Shown here: positions 1 to 36,491 of the stretch, piece by piece | Position numbering within the stretch: position 1 is the stretch's first letter | Layout of the letters: each line of letters starts with the position of its first letter | NCBI GenBank assembly: GCA_022822085.1 | Contig: JAJECK010000013.1 | Span: 1 to 37,943 of the forward strand | Length of the DNA stretch: 37,943 nucleotides | Direction: 5' to 3' | From: Candidatus Poribacteria bacterium | GTDB taxonomy: Bacteria; Poribacteria; WGA-4E; WGA-3G | The notes under the pieces: model-generated | The model's input: the letters and a program-made list of their open reading frames with translations, nothing else | Told to the model about the DNA's origin: nothing | Database searches by the model: none | Position numbers and translations under genes: made by a program

Positions 1-2
1 TG

Positions 3-98
3 ACGGTGCTTTGGCGAGGGTGGCAAAGGTTGAATGATATTTCTGATGCCTTTGCCATCCTCAATACCTCACAAGAAGAGGGAGTAACCAACAAATGA
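3..98 (+). pseudogene. Possible C-terminal tail of a transposase-like protein (runs off the left edge)
   Basis: An open frame enters from the left edge and ends at TGA 96-98, giving 31 residues that begin TVLWRGWQRLNDISDAF. The W-x-G-W-x-x-L-x-x-I pattern resembles the C-terminal tail of IS4-type DDE transposases, in which a conserved Trp-rich segment closes the protein. The last codons overlap an ATG at 95, but that second frame stops after 12 codons and is not a gene. The rest of the gene is outside the window, so neither its integrity nor its family can be tested here. A chance open frame is a real alternative. Confidence 0.3.
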
Positions 99-160
99 AT
101 CTTATAGAATTATTCGAAAAAACTTATGGGTAATAGTAAGCTGTACGAGGCAGGTGTCCT

Positions 161-5913: not shown

Positions 5914-6513
5914 ATTTCGGACCTATCTATTTCTCTCCGAGACTTTCTTTCATACCTCTATTGATACACCTTTACACGTAGGCGAGGGTGTCTAATCCTT
6001 CTGCTTCCAGGCATTGTTGAAATGTCTCATCTTCGTAATATTTGAGTATTGTGGTGAAAACCTTTTTGACGACTCTTGCGGCTTGGAGTTTCCTGTGTCT
6101 GAAACGCAATCTAATACCGTTTCTAAATAATAATGTCTCATTGCTAATTGGAAGAACCCCCTAAGTCCTCTTATCAGTGGGACTTTAAGGAAGTTTCCTT
6201 TATGACAGTTTCTTAAATAGAAATGGTATAAGTGTTCAGCGAAGTCGCGAGCATTGTTATAGGTTATATTTGGTATTGAGAATCGTATAGAGTTATATTG
6301 TAGCTCTGTTCTATTATATTTGATTTTCACTCTAATTTGAGGTGTGTTATGCAGAAATTTGCCCTAATCATGAGGTAGAACGCCAAAGATTTTGTCAGAA
6401 TTCTTATTTTGGGCCTTGTTTTGTGTATATCCTACACTCCGCACTTGTTTTTATTCATTTTTATATTTTCAGCTTAAACCCGTATCACACAAGGATTCGT
6501 ACACAATAAGTGA
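5914..6513. other. Repeat-rich intergenic stretch without a convincing gene
   Basis: A minus-strand open frame (5992-6330) exists, but part of its translation (PLIRGLRGFF) is just the reading of a degraded copy of the 32752-32882 repeat (about 6157-6200). I do not call it a gene. The remainder is A/T-rich and holds the element at 6114-6230. Confidence 0.6.
6114..6230. mobile_element. MITE-like element, 117 bp, with ends shared with 17342-17489 and 28537-28684
   Basis: The left end ATACCGTTTCTA (6115 onward) and the right end TAGAAATGGTAT (6218-6229) form an 11/12 terminal inverted repeat. The same ends bound the two elements at about 17342 and 28537. The inside differs: it carries a degraded 'CCCCCTAAG...CTTATCAG' arm typical of another family (32752-32882) instead of the GTCGGGT palindrome. 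Confidence 0.5.
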
Positions 6514-6531
6514 GATTTTGAATTCTATACT

Positions 6532-7128
6532 TTGAGACAAGTTCTAATTTTTTTAACCTTTATTGTCATCATAATCTTTGGACAGCATCATTACATAAAT
6601 ATAGCGTGTGTTGTTATAATCGGTGTTATTTTTATACTTGACGCAGTAGACGGTATTGTAGCTCGAAAACAGAATCAGACCTCTACATTCGGTGCTGTCT
6701 TCGACATTGCTGCTGACAGAGTTATAGAAAACGTATTCTGGATTTACTTTGCAACCAGAGGACTTGTCCATGTCTGGATGCCGGTTGCCGTGGTTACGCG
6801 CGGGTTTCTGATCGACGGTGTCCGCAGCATGGCACTAACAGATGGAAAAACACCCTTTGAAATGATGTCTATACCTTGGACGCGCGTGTTGACAAGCTCT
6901 CGCATTTCACGTCTGTTTTCCGGTTTTTCTAAGGCACTTGCATTCCTCTGTCTTGCTACTATGGCTTTACTTCAAAACGCTTCCCTCAACGAGGCATTCC
7001 TCAATATTTTTTCAGCAACATCCACAACAATTGCCACTATTGCTGTTGCAATCTGTCTGATTCGAGGATTTCCTGTGCTTATTGATGGGTGGAAGTATAT
7101 CAAGCAGGACGGACGCATCTCCTCTTAA
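6532..7128 (+). CDS. CDP-alcohol phosphatidyltransferase family protein
   Basis: This 198-residue integral membrane enzyme would transfer a phosphatidyl group from CDP-diacylglycerol, or a related CDP-alcohol, to an alcohol acceptor in phospholipid synthesis. The family signature is complete: D37-xx-D40-G41-xx-A44-R45-x8-G54-xxx-D58-xxx-D62. The acidic residues bind the metal and are the catalytic aspartates. Hydrophobic helices lie at about residues 4-16, 22-36, 64-78, 135-148 and 160-178. The acceptor cannot be named from the sequence. The only in-frame start after the upstream stop at 6511 is a TTG at 6532, and the first helix begins at once. The usual N-terminal 'PN-x-LT-x-xR' segment is missing, so the gene may be 5'-truncated or use a poor start. 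It stands alone between two repeat-rich gaps. Confidence 0.75.
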   Translation: MRQVLIFLTFIVIIIFGQHHYINIACVVIIGVIFILDAVDGIVARKQNQTSTFGAVFDIAADRVIENVFWIYFATRGLVHVWMPVAVVTRGFLIDGVRSMALTDGKTPFEMMSIPWTRVLTSSRISRLFSGFSKALAFLCLATMALLQNASLNEAFLNIFSATSTTIATIAVAICLIRGFPVLIDGWKYIKQDGRISS

Positions 7129-7237
7129 ATCCCCTTGAATGAAGATAAAAAAATATTTCGGTTCTTTCTTTAGTCCCGTCTGGACGATATGTTTATACAG
7201 TATATCTCATAAATCATAATAGGACACCTTCATCGTA

Positions 7238-23118: not shown

Positions 23119-23507
23119 CTATTTTCAATATACCTTTTCTAAAACAATCATGAATTTCATCTTGACAGAATTTAGTTTTTTGATGTTTTTTATATGAAGA
23201 TTCTTCATTAATTATTAAAATAAATTTCTATATTGCATCTTGCATCTATACTTTCTTTATGATTCATATCAATTTCTAAATTTCCACAAAAAATACTCTT
23301 CTATTCTAACAGGATAGATGTAAAAATACAAGGAAAATAAGAGAAGGGGTGTGTAAGGATTTTGTACACTTCACATCAAATTGTGTTTCTTGTCAGTTAG
23401 GTTTCGTTCCTCAACCCAACCTTTGGCAAGGTTTCCTAACCTCGCCAAAGGACCGATTTATTTTCTTAATCTTCATTCAAGGGGAATGCGTAAGTCCTGA
23501 TTATAAT
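23119..23507. other. 389-bp gap with repeat remnants
   Basis: It is A/T-rich with no ORF. The right part (23395-23500) has a remnant of the GTTGGGTTTCGT..CTCAACCCAAC palindrome, a copy of the 60-bp repeat (23425-23476) and, abutting it, a lone end of the 32752-32882 element. Confidence 0.6.
23425..23500 (+). repeat. 60-bp repeat copy 3 fused to a solo end of the GTAAGTCCTG element
   Basis: GGCAAGGTTTCCTAACCTCGCC (one stem mismatch) with its TTTTCTTAATCTTCAT tail ends at 23476. It continues directly as TCAAGGGGAATGCGTAAGTCCTG, which matches the right end of the element at 32752-32882. A degraded form of the same junction (CCCCTTGAATGAAGAT...) lies at 7128-7160. Confidence 0.7.
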
Positions 23508-31549: not shown

Positions 31550-32692
31550 TTAGATATAACCTGTAGATCCATCAGGACGGATAGGACAGGTTCTTTGCCA
31601 ATGTGCATATTCGTTATCTGTTACTGCATCTTCGTTAATCTCAACACCCAAACCAGGACTATCACGTAATTCCAAGTAACCATCCTTTGGCATATACGGT
31701 TCGTCAACCCAAGAATTCCAAGCACTATCAGTAGGGAGAAGATATTCAAGGATTTTGAAATTAGGCGTTGCTGCAGCGAAGTGAACATTGACTGCAGTTG
31801 CCAGAGGTCCCATAGGATTATGTGGTGCTATACTAACATAATGTGCCTCAGCAATCGCAGCGATTTTGCGCATCTCTAACAACCCGCCACACACACAAAC
31901 ATCAGGTTGTATGATGTCCGCCCCTTGTGCAGCGATAATATCAAGGAATTCAAACCGAGTGTATAAGGATTCTCCTGTTGCCAGTGGTACTTGCATCTGT
32001 GAACGAAGGCGGGACCATGCTGGAATATGCTCAGGCCGTAAAGGTTCTTCATAGAAATATGGATCATACGGAGCAAGTGCATTTGCCAATTGAAGTGCGC
32101 GTATCGGTTCAAAAATCTTTGCATGTGGGTCAAACGCGAACTCCCAATCATCAGGTGTATTCAATCTTATCTGTTCAAAATAGGTAGCAGCCGCATCACA
32201 GACCCTTCCCCATCTATCTGCATCTGGATTTAGTTGATATGGACTTGTTTTGAATGCAGTAAATCCCCATTCTTCATTGAGTTTACGTGCTTGATCTGCA
32301 GCTTCAATACCATCTCTCCCACCTATACCTCGATAGACGCGGATTCTGTCACGCGCATGTCCACCGAGTAGCATGTAAACTGGTAAACCTGCAGCTTTCC
32401 CACTGATGTCCCAAAGAGCATGATCAATCGCAGAGATGACTGCGAGTCCGGCACCACCGGGTGGAAAACGAAACTGCTGATGTAGTTTCAGCATAATATA
32501 TTCTATGCGACGCGGATCATCTCCTTGAATCATTTCAAAAATATAGTTCGCTATCGGTTCAACAGAGAGATCCGGTCCAGTAGAATATGCTTCACCCCAT
32601 CCGTATAGTCCTTCATCTGTTTCTACTTTGATGAGTCCCCTTGAACGGTTGCCGAAGTTTGCTATGAAGGTTTTAATTGCAGTAATTTTCAT
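31550..32692 (-). CDS. Enolase-superfamily sugar-acid dehydratase (galactonate-dehydratase-like)
   Basis: The frame opens at 32734, but the first 14 residues (MMKYYCNNDHRYII) are atypical. The ATG at 32692 begins the family-like MKITAIKTFIANFGNRSRGL, giving 380 residues. Short-numbering landmarks: D188-P-H190 in FAFDPHAKIF, E215 in FYEEPLRPE, E241 in ATGESLYTR as metal ligands, and H291 in SIAPHNPMGP as the catalytic base. This D-x-H / E / E / H layout is that of the D-galactonate and mannonate dehydratase branch of the mandelate racemase subgroup, which removes water from an aldonic acid to give the 2-keto-3-deoxy product. Which aldonate is used is not decidable here. It is followed by a Gfo/Idh gene. 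Confidence 0.88.
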   Translation of the reverse strand: MKITAIKTFIANFGNRSRGLIKVETDEGLYGWGEAYSTGPDLSVEPIANYIFEMIQGDDPRRIEYIMLKLHQQFRFPPGGAGLAVISAIDHALWDISGKAAGLPVYMLLGGHARDRIRVYRGIGGRDGIEAADQARKLNEEWGFTAFKTSPYQLNPDADRWGRVCDAAATYFEQIRLNTPDDWEFAFDPHAKIFEPIRALQLANALAPYDPYFYEEPLRPEHIPAWSRLRSQMQVPLATGESLYTRFEFLDIIAAQGADIIQPDVCVCGGLLEMRKIAAIAEAHYVSIAPHNPMGPLATAVNVHFAAATPNFKILEYLLPTDSAWNSWVDEPYMPKDGYLELRDSPGLGVEINEDAVTDNEYAHWQRTCPIRPDGSTGYI

Positions 32693-32746
32693 GATTATAT
32701 ACCTGTGGTCATTATTACAATAATATTTCATCATGTCAAGTTCAAA

Positions 32747-32887
32747 TCATTCAGGACTTACGCATTTTCTCTTAAAGTCCCCTTGATAAGGGGGATTTAG
32801 GGGGTTAGAAAGACTAAAAACACTGAAATATAGCACCATTTAACCCCCTAACCCCCTTATCAAGGGGAATGTGTAAGTCCTGTCATT
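32747..32887. mobile_element. 131-bp non-autonomous element with terminal inverted repeats and 5-bp target duplication
   Basis: The element (32752-32882) begins CAGGACTTACGCATTTTC and ends GAATGTGTAAGTCCTG. Its arms carry CCCCTTGATAAGGGGGATTT.GGGGGTTA and the inverse TAACCCCCTAACCCCCTTATCAAGGGG. TCATT stands immediately on both sides (32747-32751 and 32883-32887), as expected of a target-site duplication. No ORF lies inside. It inserted about 60 bp upstream of the dehydratase start. A lone end is seen at 23477-23499 and a degraded arm at 6157-6200. Confidence 0.8.
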
Positions 32888-33125
32888 GCTATTCACTATT
32901 CGGAATTTTGGGTGATTTTTTGCCACAACCGTTATTGTTTTTAGAATCACGGATGACTCAGATTTCGCGAAAAATGAATCCATTTCTAATAAAGAGTGTC
33001 TCAATATTAGATTATAGGTTAACACTGAGGTAAAGAATGTAAGAGACCGAATGTATTGTGCTTCTACAAACGTATTCTTTGTTAATGAGGAGTGATCAAT
33101 TAGGAACGGTATGACGATATAAACC

Positions 33126-34259: not shown

Positions 34260-36491
34260 TTAAGGTGCGGGAACACTTGTGTCGAATGCCCCAGCAACGA
34301 GAACGAGGTCTTGGATATTAACAAGTCCATCACCATTGACATCCGCATCATTCTGTCCTCTCTGTCCAAAATTTGAAGCGACTAACACCAGATCCTGGAT
34401 GTTTATTACACCGTCGGTATTCACATCAAGATGTTCAGGGAAAGTGTCGCTGGTAGCAGCGGATAATACTGTATATTTCGCGTCAGATGCAAACCCAAAA
34501 TAACCGGTAAAACCCAGACCTATTAAGCGATTATCAACTGCTACTAACAGAACGTTTCTGCCCTTTTCCAGCGTAACATCAAAAACGCTCTGGTAACCTC
34601 TGCAAGCACGTGCAACGAGTGCTTGATGAATCAGCTTCCCGTTAAGCCAAATCTTGACAGCATCATCACTACCTACAAACATTCTTGTTTGCTGTTGTTC
34701 AGGAGCCTCTAAGACGATTGAACCGTAGACGGTAACGGCACCTTTTTTCCATCCAAGGCTATCTATCATTTCATTTATGTTATTGGCACGATCAGAGATT
34801 TTGTATGATGTCCAGCGACTGTTGCCAACAGCCAGTCCCTCCTTTGCCCCGTTGGTTGCCACCTTTAATTCTGTCGTCTCACCGTTGCTTGCGATTGCCA
34901 AAAAATCTATATCCTCCTGGAGTGCTGCTACTGGTACTGTCACCCATAACCAGGGTCCTGTTATTTTTGGACCTCCTCTTGGGAATCCAGGATTCATGCC
35001 CCAAGAGATGACTGTATTTTCACTTAATCCATCTAAAGACGATATATCAGAGATCAAATTCGCTTCAAGGTCAAAATATATACAGTTGATTAATTCTGCA
35101 AGTGGAGATACATCCGAGATGTTATTGTAGCTTAGATATAAATGGGTTAGTTGTGTTAGTTCTGCCAGGGGAGATACATCCGAGATGTTATTGCGCTCAA
35201 GCAACAACTGCGTTAGTTGTGTTAGTTCTGCAAGTGGAGATATATCTGAGATGTTATTCTTTCCTGCAATCTGTAAAAACGTCAGTTTTGTAAGTTTTGA
35301 AAGCTTTGATAAATCTGAGATTATTCCATTACCACGAATTTGCAATGTCTTAAGAGCGTGAACATGCTCAAGACCTGTGAAGTCTATTATCTCAGTGGTA
35401 ATATGAAGCTCCAACAAAGGCAGCGTGTTGCGTTTTGTCAGCGGCACGTCGGGAGAAAGATCGAGGCGTTCCCGTACTAACGCATCTAAATTTCGGTCTG
35501 GTATGGAAAAAACTTTATCAATCGATAGTAAGAGATCGACATCAATCGGATAATTCGGTGATCTTACAATATTCCCATGCCCATCCATAACATTAAGTGC
35601 TACATACTCATGTTCCGGTGTCAAGGCAGTTGTGACAAATTCGACAGTGTGGTGTGTACCTCCATCTAATACTTTACAGTCGATTAAGCCAAAATTGCCA
35701 CTTAGTACCAACAATTGCACTTGATGTAGTCCGTCAAGATCGGATATTTCGAATCGAAGGCGAATAGCATTGCTGGAAGAAGAAACAGTCGGGTAAAATA
35801 CCTTAATATTGGTAGGTTTATTAGATGCAAGTAAAGGTCGATTAAAGGCATGGTGGGCATCCAGCCATTCAGCAGTGCAGAAAGACCCTATCATTGGATC
35901 AGTAGTGTATATGTCTACCCCAAGTTCTAAATTCTTGCGGTAATCATGCAGCAATCCAAAAGCGTGCCCGAGTTCATGAGCAGTTACAGCAATGCCGAAA
36001 TCCTCCTCAAGATGTTTTCCAAAAGGGATCAACGCCTGTCTTCCAAGAACATCCGCTTGTCCATATCTACCACTCCGACCATCAAGGTATTCGTTACTCA
36101 TATCTATTACAGTGAGATAGATATTCCTTGATAGATCAAAGCGCGGCTCAATTTCAAGCCAGACGTCCCATGTTGATGATAAACTACTATAATGTTTATC
36201 CGTGAACTGACCAATAACGTGATGTACTACTAAATCTCCGGACGCATCTGTTTCACACTGAAAGGTTTTTCTCTCAAAACCGTGGAATTCCATCATATCC
36301 GCGTAAAACTGCTGCACATCTTTCATTAACGTATCCAATTTAGCGTCTATGTCTGGTTGAGGTTCTACATCATTGGGAAGAAAGTAAATAAGACGGACTA
36401 TAGGACTCTCTTGCTGTTGTGCTTGAGCAAATTTTGGAATCCAAAAACTTAATAGGAAAACTAAGACAATAAACAAACTTCGGAATTTCAT
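34260..36491 (-). CDS. Secreted metalloprotease with LRR, carbohydrate-binding-like and dockerin domains
   Basis: The 743-residue protein has a signal peptide ending at about FAQA (24). Its metalloprotease domain carries H172-E-L-G-H176-AFGL-L-H182-D183, a full HExxHxxGxxHD metzincin site, with DPMIGSF (M200) a possible Met-turn. A beta-rich region spans about 225-330. Leucine-rich repeats at about 357-490 are internalin-like, 22 residues each (NNISDVSPLAELTQLTHLYL). Next is a region with ..MFVGSDDAVKIWLNGKLIH (about 603-622), typical of PA14/NPCBM-like ligand-binding modules. Two dockerin/EF-hand repeats close the protein (DVNTDGVINIQDLVLVASNF and DVNGDGLVNIQDLVLVAGAF). AAAGGAG lies 6-7 nt before the ATG. 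The usual C-terminal sorting module is missing and survives only as broken fragments downstream. The likely role is extracellular degradation of, or binding to, matrix material. Confidence 0.85.
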   Translation of the reverse strand: MKFRSLFIVLVFLLSFWIPKFAQAQQQESPIVRLIYFLPNDVEPQPDIDAKLDTLMKDVQQFYADMMEFHGFERKTFQCETDASGDLVVHHVIGQFTDKHYSSLSSTWDVWLEIEPRFDLSRNIYLTVIDMSNEYLDGRSGRYGQADVLGRQALIPFGKHLEEDFGIAVTAHELGHAFGLLHDYRKNLELGVDIYTTDPMIGSFCTAEWLDAHHAFNRPLLASNKPTNIKVFYPTVSSSSNAIRLRFEISDLDGLHQVQLLVLSGNFGLIDCKVLDGGTHHTVEFVTTALTPEHEYVALNVMDGHGNIVRSPNYPIDVDLLLSIDKVFSIPDRNLDALVRERLDLSPDVPLTKRNTLPLLELHITTEIIDFTGLEHVHALKTLQIRGNGIISDLSKLSKLTKLTFLQIAGKNNISDISPLAELTQLTQLLLERNNISDVSPLAELTQLTHLYLSYNNISDVSPLAELINCIYFDLEANLISDISSLDGLSENTVISWGMNPGFPRGGPKITGPWLWVTVPVAALQEDIDFLAIASNGETTELKVATNGAKEGLAVGNSRWTSYKISDRANNINEMIDSLGWKKGAVTVYGSIVLEAPEQQQTRMFVGSDDAVKIWLNGKLIHQALVARACRGYQSVFDVTLEKGRNVLLVAVDNRLIGLGFTGYFGFASDAKYTVLSAATSDTFPEHLDVNTDGVINIQDLVLVASNFGQRGQNDADVNGDGLVNIQDLVLVAGAFDTSVPAP
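35090..35275 (-). repeat. 66-bp in-frame tandem repeats encoding LRR units
   Basis: TTAGTTCTGC.AG.GGAGATA.ATC.GAGATGTTATT recurs about every 66 bp (three units, with only a few differences). Each repeat corresponds to one 22-residue leucine-rich repeat of the protease-LRR protein. The nucleotide identity suggests recent expansion. Confidence 0.75.

What the first reader, a model, noticed from the sequence alone, without database searches (positions are those of the whole stretch)
32747..32887. 131-bp element with CAGGACTTAC ends and an intact 5-bp target duplication
The TIRs and the flanking TCATT repeats show a genuine transposition event by a non-autonomous element, close to the start of the dehydratase gene. 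The lone end at 23477-23499 and a degraded arm at 6157-6200 show earlier rounds.
Basis: seen in the sequence. Interest (0 to 1): 0.5.

Follow-up and report, generated by a model that had tools for sequence, protein, structure and literature searches.

The report
Small hitch-hiking transposon with near-universal ends
The window holds one copy of a 131-base non-coding mobile element that is scattered in dozens of copies through a Poribacteria genome and is most likely moved by a separate IS701-type transposase; its short ends recur almost unchanged in cyanobacteria, proteobacteria and archaea.

Summary
Window 32752-32882 is a 131-bp element with CAGGACTTAC ends and an exact TCATT duplication. 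The own genome has 28 places at 88-100% identity and 12 at 76-83%, 8 of the latter with other ends. Of 27 parsed short elements with these ends, 25 have a perfect 5-bp duplication; shuffled flanks give about 1. Two other copies have MITE-less orthologous sites in relatives. The window's own empty site cannot be read, because the spacer has diverged.

The likely donor is an IS701-family transposase (NF049921) on about 1.09-kb elements with the same ends in relatives. The own assembly holds only fragments. So this is a MITE, a new member of a known kind.

Less expected: the 12-bp end AGGACTTACGCA is exact at both ends of 7 of 7 opened plasmid relatives and has one mismatch on one side in Methanosarcina. 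Short elements with these ends but unlike interiors occur in Poribacteria, cyanobacteria, Chloroflexi, Parabeggiatoa, a Parcubacterium and Methanosarcina; 57 of 82 carry a perfect 5-bp duplication.

The copy sits just upstream of a predicted, intact promoter of an enolase-superfamily gene.

The parts
32752..32882 (.). 131-bp MITE, non-coding, long imperfect hairpin
32747..32751 (.). left target duplication TCATT
32883..32887 (.). right target duplication TCATT
32752..32765 (+). left terminal inverted repeat CAGGACTTACGCAT
   Evidence: end matches the IS701-family elements
32869..32882 (-). right terminal inverted repeat (one C-to-T change relative to the family consensus)
32778..32868 (.). inner palindrome (CCCCTTGATAAGGGGGATTTAGGGGG ... 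TTAACCCCCTAACCCCCTTATCAAGGGG)
   Evidence: self antisense match; fold
32711..32739 (-). predicted sigma-70 promoter TTGACA-17-AATAAT (11 of 12), left intact by the insertion
   Evidence: the same TTGACA-N17-AATAAT read by eye in relative G010
31550..32692 (-). enolase-superfamily (MR_MLE) gene downstream of that promoter; start at 32692 inferred
23487..23499 (-). lone MITE end, interrupted after CCCCTTGA by another repeat
7105..7135 (+). degraded MITE end (2 mismatches), broken at the same place
   Evidence: inverted repeat I23
6157..6189 (.). core-arm-like stretch without element ends; probably part of another repeat family

Best explanation
It is a MITE: a non-coding passenger whose 13-bp ends are recognised in trans by an IS701-family DDE transposase (NCBIfam transpos_IS701_2). 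The transposase cuts at YAGGACTTACGCA / TGCGTAAGTCCTR, inserts the element into AT-rich, mostly intergenic DNA and leaves a 5-bp duplication. Shown: the ends, the copy number, the duplications, MITE-less orthologous sites at two other copies, and the same ends (with duplications where both flanks could be read, with a few exceptions) on transposase-coding elements of relatives. Inferred: that this transposase moves the MITE, that it acts by cut-and-paste, and that the element came to the window's site by it. In the present genome the partner survives only as fragments, so the family may be immobile now, unless an intact copy was lost in assembly.
For: Copies: 28 places at 88-100%; 39 of 59 genomes searched, own included, have a match. 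Perfect 5-bp duplications in 25 of 27 parsed elements, against a shuffled mean of 1.06 and maximum of 7 in 2000 shuffles. MITE-less sites: pstB-phoU in 15 of 15 relatives that match there (12 with one alignment across the junction, 3 with other palindromic repeats in the spacer), pheT-ubiE in 13 of 13 inspected of 17 that match (8 across the junction, 5 with longer spacers that hold no end of this element with up to 2 mismatches). Partner: IS elements of 1090-1092 bp with the same ends in relatives G004, G034, G010 and G023; the three transposases tested reach 373.5, 378.7 and 376 bits against a cut-off of 250. Duplications of 5 bp on the IS: 7 of 8 G034 copies read (L146-L151, L153) and both G010 copies whose two edges were printed (L154, L156). 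Truncated IS with the same end and the start of the transposase gene in the own genome: C11 and C90. In one-contig genome G010, neighbouring exact ends that face each other lie 122-167 bp apart in 17 cases; the next spacing is 1287 bp.
Against: No intact partner in the own assembly: 7 partial matches, 0 over the cut-off. Beyond about 13 bp the MITE shows no similarity by eye to the IS ends, so it is not a plain internal-deletion derivative. At the window's own site the empty target is not readable. Of the 27 parsed elements, 2 lack a perfect duplication: L058 has 4 of 5 and L070 has 1 of 5. One G034 IS copy (L152) fits 6 bp rather than 5, the G023 IS has no duplication, and the three G004 copies begin at contig edges, so theirs cannot be read. 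The right end of the G010 IS carries one mismatch. Of six plasmid IS read with both edges, two (Nodularia, A. baumannii) show no perfect 5-bp duplication.
Confidence: 0.93

Rival explanations
1. The element is a regulatory or transcription-terminating hairpin (RNA or DNA structure) whose spread is kept by selection rather than by transposition alone.
For: Very stable fold, z -11.4; places between genes, including between pstB and phoU and between pheT and ubiE.
Against: No Rfam family at gathering score; the three sub-threshold matches are microRNA precursor families far below their gathering scores, most likely hairpin noise. No terminator-like site was found in 32650-33100. Orthologous sites lack it. 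The 5-bp duplications are explained only by transposition.
Confidence: 0.05
2. A different transposase with similar ends, not the IS701_2 type, moved this family.
For: No intact IS701_2 gene in the own assembly; the interior is unrelated to the IS.
Against: Ends agree with IS701_2 elements in four relatives and in 7 of 7 opened plasmid relatives. The 5-bp duplication agrees in most Poribacteria copies where it could be read and in 4 of 6 plasmid elements read with both edges.
Confidence: 0.04
3. Gene conversion or segmental duplication, not transposition, spread the copies.
For: A few copies look recombined: the nested C76 copy and 112-bp hybrids. A separate IS701 right-end fragment repeats with identical flanks in three contigs.
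Against: 25 of 27 parsed elements have their own perfect duplication, mostly of different sequence.
Confidence: 0.01

Closest known systems
IS701-family insertion sequences of NCBIfam class NF049921, with ISPlag1 (Planktothrix; named by the record's annotation) as a close named relative
   Same: AGGACTTACGCA at both ends and a 5-bp duplication (TTCAA on both sides of ISPlag1). The ISPlag1 transposase is 53.6% identical to the G004 one.
   Different: The IS codes for the transposase and is 1.1-1.4 kb; the window element is 131 bp, codes for nothing and shares only the ends. ISPlag1 itself was not scanned against NF049921.
ISAba11 (Acinetobacter)
   Same: Called a member of the IS701 family in PMC7326120 (passages seen). 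PMC7760358 gives positions that make it 1101 bp (passages seen).
   Different: Its ends were not read here. The A. baumannii element read (L166, 1158 bp) has the ends but was not shown to be ISAba11.
Cyanobacterial MITEs such as Nezha
   Same: Cyanobacterial elements of 118-148 bp with these very ends were found here. Nezha is cited as a cyanobacterial MITE in the reference list of PMC10969869 (passages seen).
   Different: The Nezha sequence was not seen; whether it is one of these elements is a lead, not a test.

Membership tests
MITE | short, with terminal inverted repeats | tested here: met
   131 bp; outer 10 bp perfect, one mismatch at position 11
MITE | target-site duplication | tested here: met
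   TCATT; 25 of 27 parsed elements perfect
MITE | many dispersed copies | tested here: met
   28 places at 88-100% in the own genome, plus 12 at 76-83%, of which 8 have other ends
MITE | no transposase gene inside | tested here: met
   131 bp; no ORF of 100 aa or more lies inside it
MITE | ends shared with an autonomous element | tested here: met
   IS701_2 elements in relatives
MITE | mobilised in trans by that transposase | not testable with these tools
   needs an assay
partner: IS701 family | transposase over the curated cut-off of NF049921 | tested here: met
   3 of 3 proteins from G004, G034 and G010: 373.5, 378.7, 376.0 bits against 250
partner: IS701 family | intact copy in the window's own genome | tested here: not met
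   7 partial matches, 0 over the cut-off; the assembly has 158 contigs, so a collapsed copy could be missing

The most novel reading that the evidence does not exclude
The IS701_2 clade uses one practically frozen 12-bp end (AGGACTTACGCA) across bacteria and archaea while its transposases diverge to about a third identity. Many unrelated, often hairpin-like fillers between two such ends have become MITEs, so Poribacteria, cyanobacteria, Chloroflexi and Methanosarcina carry end-identical but interior-unlike MITEs. A transposase that enters from a foreign phylum could then wake the resident MITEs of its new host, including genomes like this one that keep the MITEs but show no intact enzyme.
Probability: 0.4. 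Interest if true: 0.55.

Novelty: new member of a known kind. Interest (0 to 1): 0.35.

Why it matters
It identifies the likely donor of a widespread repeat family in an uncultured, mostly sponge-associated phylum (habitat recalled and from the paper listing). It also gives a concrete case in which MITE ends, not interiors, are what is conserved across domains, so cross-phylum mobilisation can be tested at the bench with one transposase and several MITEs.

Tried and rejected
Viral contigs: no paired-end element of 116-146 bp or of 304-334 bp, and no stretch matching the peptide patterns of the transposase, so phage carriage has no support. Plasmids: no match to the 131-bp element at blastn sensitivity. 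Solved structures: one weak match (E 0.027) to an unrelated protein. Papers: the strings CAGGACTTACGCA (0 papers) and GGACTTACGCA (1 paper, a Vibrio efflux paper seen only in the listing), and Poribacteria with 'miniature inverted-repeat transposable' (0 papers); in these searches of the open-licence library neither the end nor the element was found described. The library lacks most subscription papers and ISfinder was not searchable. The test whether copies lie inside reading frames (25 copies) is informative only for the 8 with flanks of 575 bases or more, 0 of 8 of which lie in a frame of 100 aa or more; the short-flank loci could hardly have shown one. The search for a G000 IS by pairing exact ends gave only a 719-bp composite, in which no ORF of 60 aa or more was listed. 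The length range of 116-146 bp was set by my pattern, so lengths there are no evidence of a preferred size; the G010 list is free of that limit.

Full report
WHAT IS THERE. Window 32752-32882 is a 131-bp element. Its outer 10 bp are perfect inverted repeats and the single mismatch in the first 15 bp is at position 11. TCATT stands on both sides. As RNA the strand folds into one long hairpin at -71.6 kcal/mol, z -11.4 against shuffles.

THE FAMILY IN THIS GENOME. The window is the whole contig C143 of a 5.63-Mb, 158-contig assembly. A search with the 131 bp gives 28 places at 88-100% identity and 12 more at 76-83%; the other rows of the table are matches of the palindrome to its own other strand or part of a nested copy. 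Eight of the 12 diverged places have other ends and share only the core. The end CAGGACTTACGCA occurs 34 times forward and 37 times reverse, the reversed control 0 times. Not all 71 belong to this MITE: some are ends of other elements, and one lies inside a coding region (C69:15264). I looked at 42 loci with copies or related ends and parsed 27 short elements with both ends from 26 of them; the other 16 loci gave none because an end was changed, missing or cut by a contig edge, or the copy was already counted. Of the 27, 25 have a perfect 5-bp duplication, one has 4 of 5 and one 1 of 5. Dealing the right flanks out at random gives 1.06 on average and never more than 7 in 2000 trials. Of 22 elements aligned, 19 differ from the consensus at 1-7 columns and 3 at 9-15; the window copy differs at 5. 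Of the eight copies with long flanks, none lies inside a frame of 100 aa or more; two lie between pstB and its neighbours and one between pheT and ubiE, gene names being my reading of the protein sequences.

EMPTY SITES. At the window's own site the left flank was found in 13 of 18 genomes of the genus, own included. In the 11 relatives with a long match the alignment ends at window 32692-32714, before the insertion point; by eye GTCAAG still follows in 11 of 11. None shows an element end with up to one mismatch next to the site, but the TCATT site itself cannot be aligned. One of them (G012) has a lone one-mismatch end-like stretch about 230 bp away. For two other copies I joined the flanks. 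At pstB-phoU, 15 relatives match; 12 align across the junction without a MITE, and 3 (G004, G006, G013) match in two pieces with a longer spacer. At pheT-ubiE, 17 relatives match; 8 were inspected and align across the junction, 5 more match in pieces with longer spacers, and 4 were not inspected. The eight longer spacers hold other palindromic repeats by eye; none has a BLAST match to the MITE or an end with up to 2 mismatches. So the two copies are absent from all inspected relatives, and the same spacers have taken up different repeats elsewhere.

THE DONOR. Two truncated copies in the own genome begin with the same end and continue into the start of a transposase gene (C11, C90). A 43-residue piece of it matched in 23 of 59 genomes, own included. 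Relatives G004, G034, G010 and G023 carry elements of 1090-1092 bp with the same ends (the right end of the G010 one with one mismatch), with an open frame of 335-353 codons; the stop codon TAA lies inside the right end repeat. Of eight G034 copies, seven show a 5-bp duplication and one fits 6 bp; the G023 copy has none; the three G004 copies begin at contig edges and cannot be judged. Two G010 copies show 5 bp. The three proteins tested reach 373-379 bits with NCBIfam NF049921 (IS701 family, cut-off 250) and match Pfam DDE_Tnp_1 above its cut-off. The own assembly has 7 partial matches to that family, none over the cut-off. Past the end repeat the MITE shows no similarity to the IS by eye, so its filler did not obviously come from the IS. 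In one-contig genome G010, exact ends facing each other lie 122-167 bp apart in 17 cases and then not again until 1287 bp.

BEYOND PORIBACTERIA. tblastn found relatives of the transposase in 398 plasmid records, all under 60% identity. I opened 7 of the 30 listed (Paraburkholderia, Nodularia, Moraxella, Nostoc, Planktothrix ISPlag1, Gloeocapsopsis, A. baumannii); in 7 of 7 AGGACTTACGCA stands exactly at both ends. In 4 of the 6 that the script could parse, the flanks show a perfect 5-bp duplication; Nodularia and A. baumannii do not. In Methanosarcina, whose two transposases compared are 36% identical to the G004 one, the left end is exact and the right end has one mismatch; of five copies, three show 5 bp, one fits 6 bp and one 4 bp. 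Four cyanobacterial chromosomal copies (Calothrix, Anabaena) have exact ends. A 390-codon frame of bacterium 341R, 28-31% identical to the others, has no such ends in the range searched; for the Chloroflexi locus the script found no frame, so its ends were not judged. Of 82 elements with both flanks (one more, at a contig edge, was dropped), 57 have a perfect 5-bp duplication against 0.86 in shuffles. Their interiors differ; the core of the window element, by a simple string test, occurred in 8 of 28 Poribacteria elements and 0 of 55 others. Interiors fold better than shuffled sequence (z below -2) in 46 of 83 against 7 of 83 control stretches; 37 of 83 do not pass that mark, so a hairpin filler is common but not needed. 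Of 16 of these genomes searched for the transposase family, 10 have a match and 5 a match over the cut-off, so some host genomes lack a visible enzyme, as here.

EFFECT ON THE NEIGHBOUR. The gene beside the insertion (31550-32692, minus strand; start inferred) is an enolase-superfamily MR_MLE protein. A good sigma-70-type promoter match (TTGACA, 17 bp, AATAAT) lies at 32739-32711, and the same arrangement can be read in G010. The scan expects 1.6 such sites by chance in this stretch and found 2, so the case rests on its quality, its position and its presence in G010. Twelve bases separate the MITE from the -35 box, so the core promoter is intact; any effect on activator binding is open.

VERDICT. 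A MITE moved by an IS701-family enzyme: a new member of a known kind. The nearly frozen ends across domains are the part a specialist may not expect; whether this is already on file in ISfinder could not be checked.

Noticed in passing
window 1-140; G000 contigs C33, C53, C62, C67, C84, C85, C116 and others: A second insertion sequence with CTTACTATTACCCATAAGT ends sits near contig edges in 18 of 18 places (9 of each end, within 240 bases of an edge) and breaks the assembly. The window starts inside its end and shares the 9-bp duplication CTGTACGAG with the end of C33, so C33 probably precedes the window. A copy in G034 has a frame that matches an IS4-family transposase (Tn5-like N-terminal domain); the frame looks split.
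   Followed up: partly
G000 L106, L116, L117, L119 and L113, L114, L115, L118: 4 of 9 ends of each type of that IS4 element lie in the palindrome CTTGATAAG of MITE-like cores, so the MITE stem looks like an insertion hot spot. In relative G017, 6 of 16 ends lie after TGTAGGG, apparently also in repeats.
   Followed up: partly
window 7105-7153 and 23462-23499; G000 C5:41552-42270 and C139:55037: MITE ends that break after CCCCTTGA into another repeat (ATGAAGATTAA...). In C5 this makes a 719-bp element with both ends but no matching 5-bp duplication. How that repeat inserts is not explained.
   Followed up: partly
G000 L060-L064, L066, L068, L069: A second short-element class with the same core but other ends (GGACAGACGCA-like inside TTTGATA...TATCAAA), as if cores and ends were exchanged.
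   Followed up: no
L387-L394 (pstB-phoU and pheT-ubiE spacers of relatives): In 8 of 8 longer spacers of relatives a different palindromic repeat stands where G000 has the MITE; conserved gene spacers seem to take up one hairpin repeat or another.
   Followed up: partly
G000 C145, C122, C56, C104: Right-end fragments of a G010-type IS701 element; in C145, C122 and C56 the same 12-bp flank CTTTATATATCT precedes the end, which suggests a duplicated segment.
   Followed up: no
window 35090-35287 within 34260-36491: Imperfect 66-bp tandem repeats in a gene with leucine-rich repeats and a dockerin domain.
   Followed up: no
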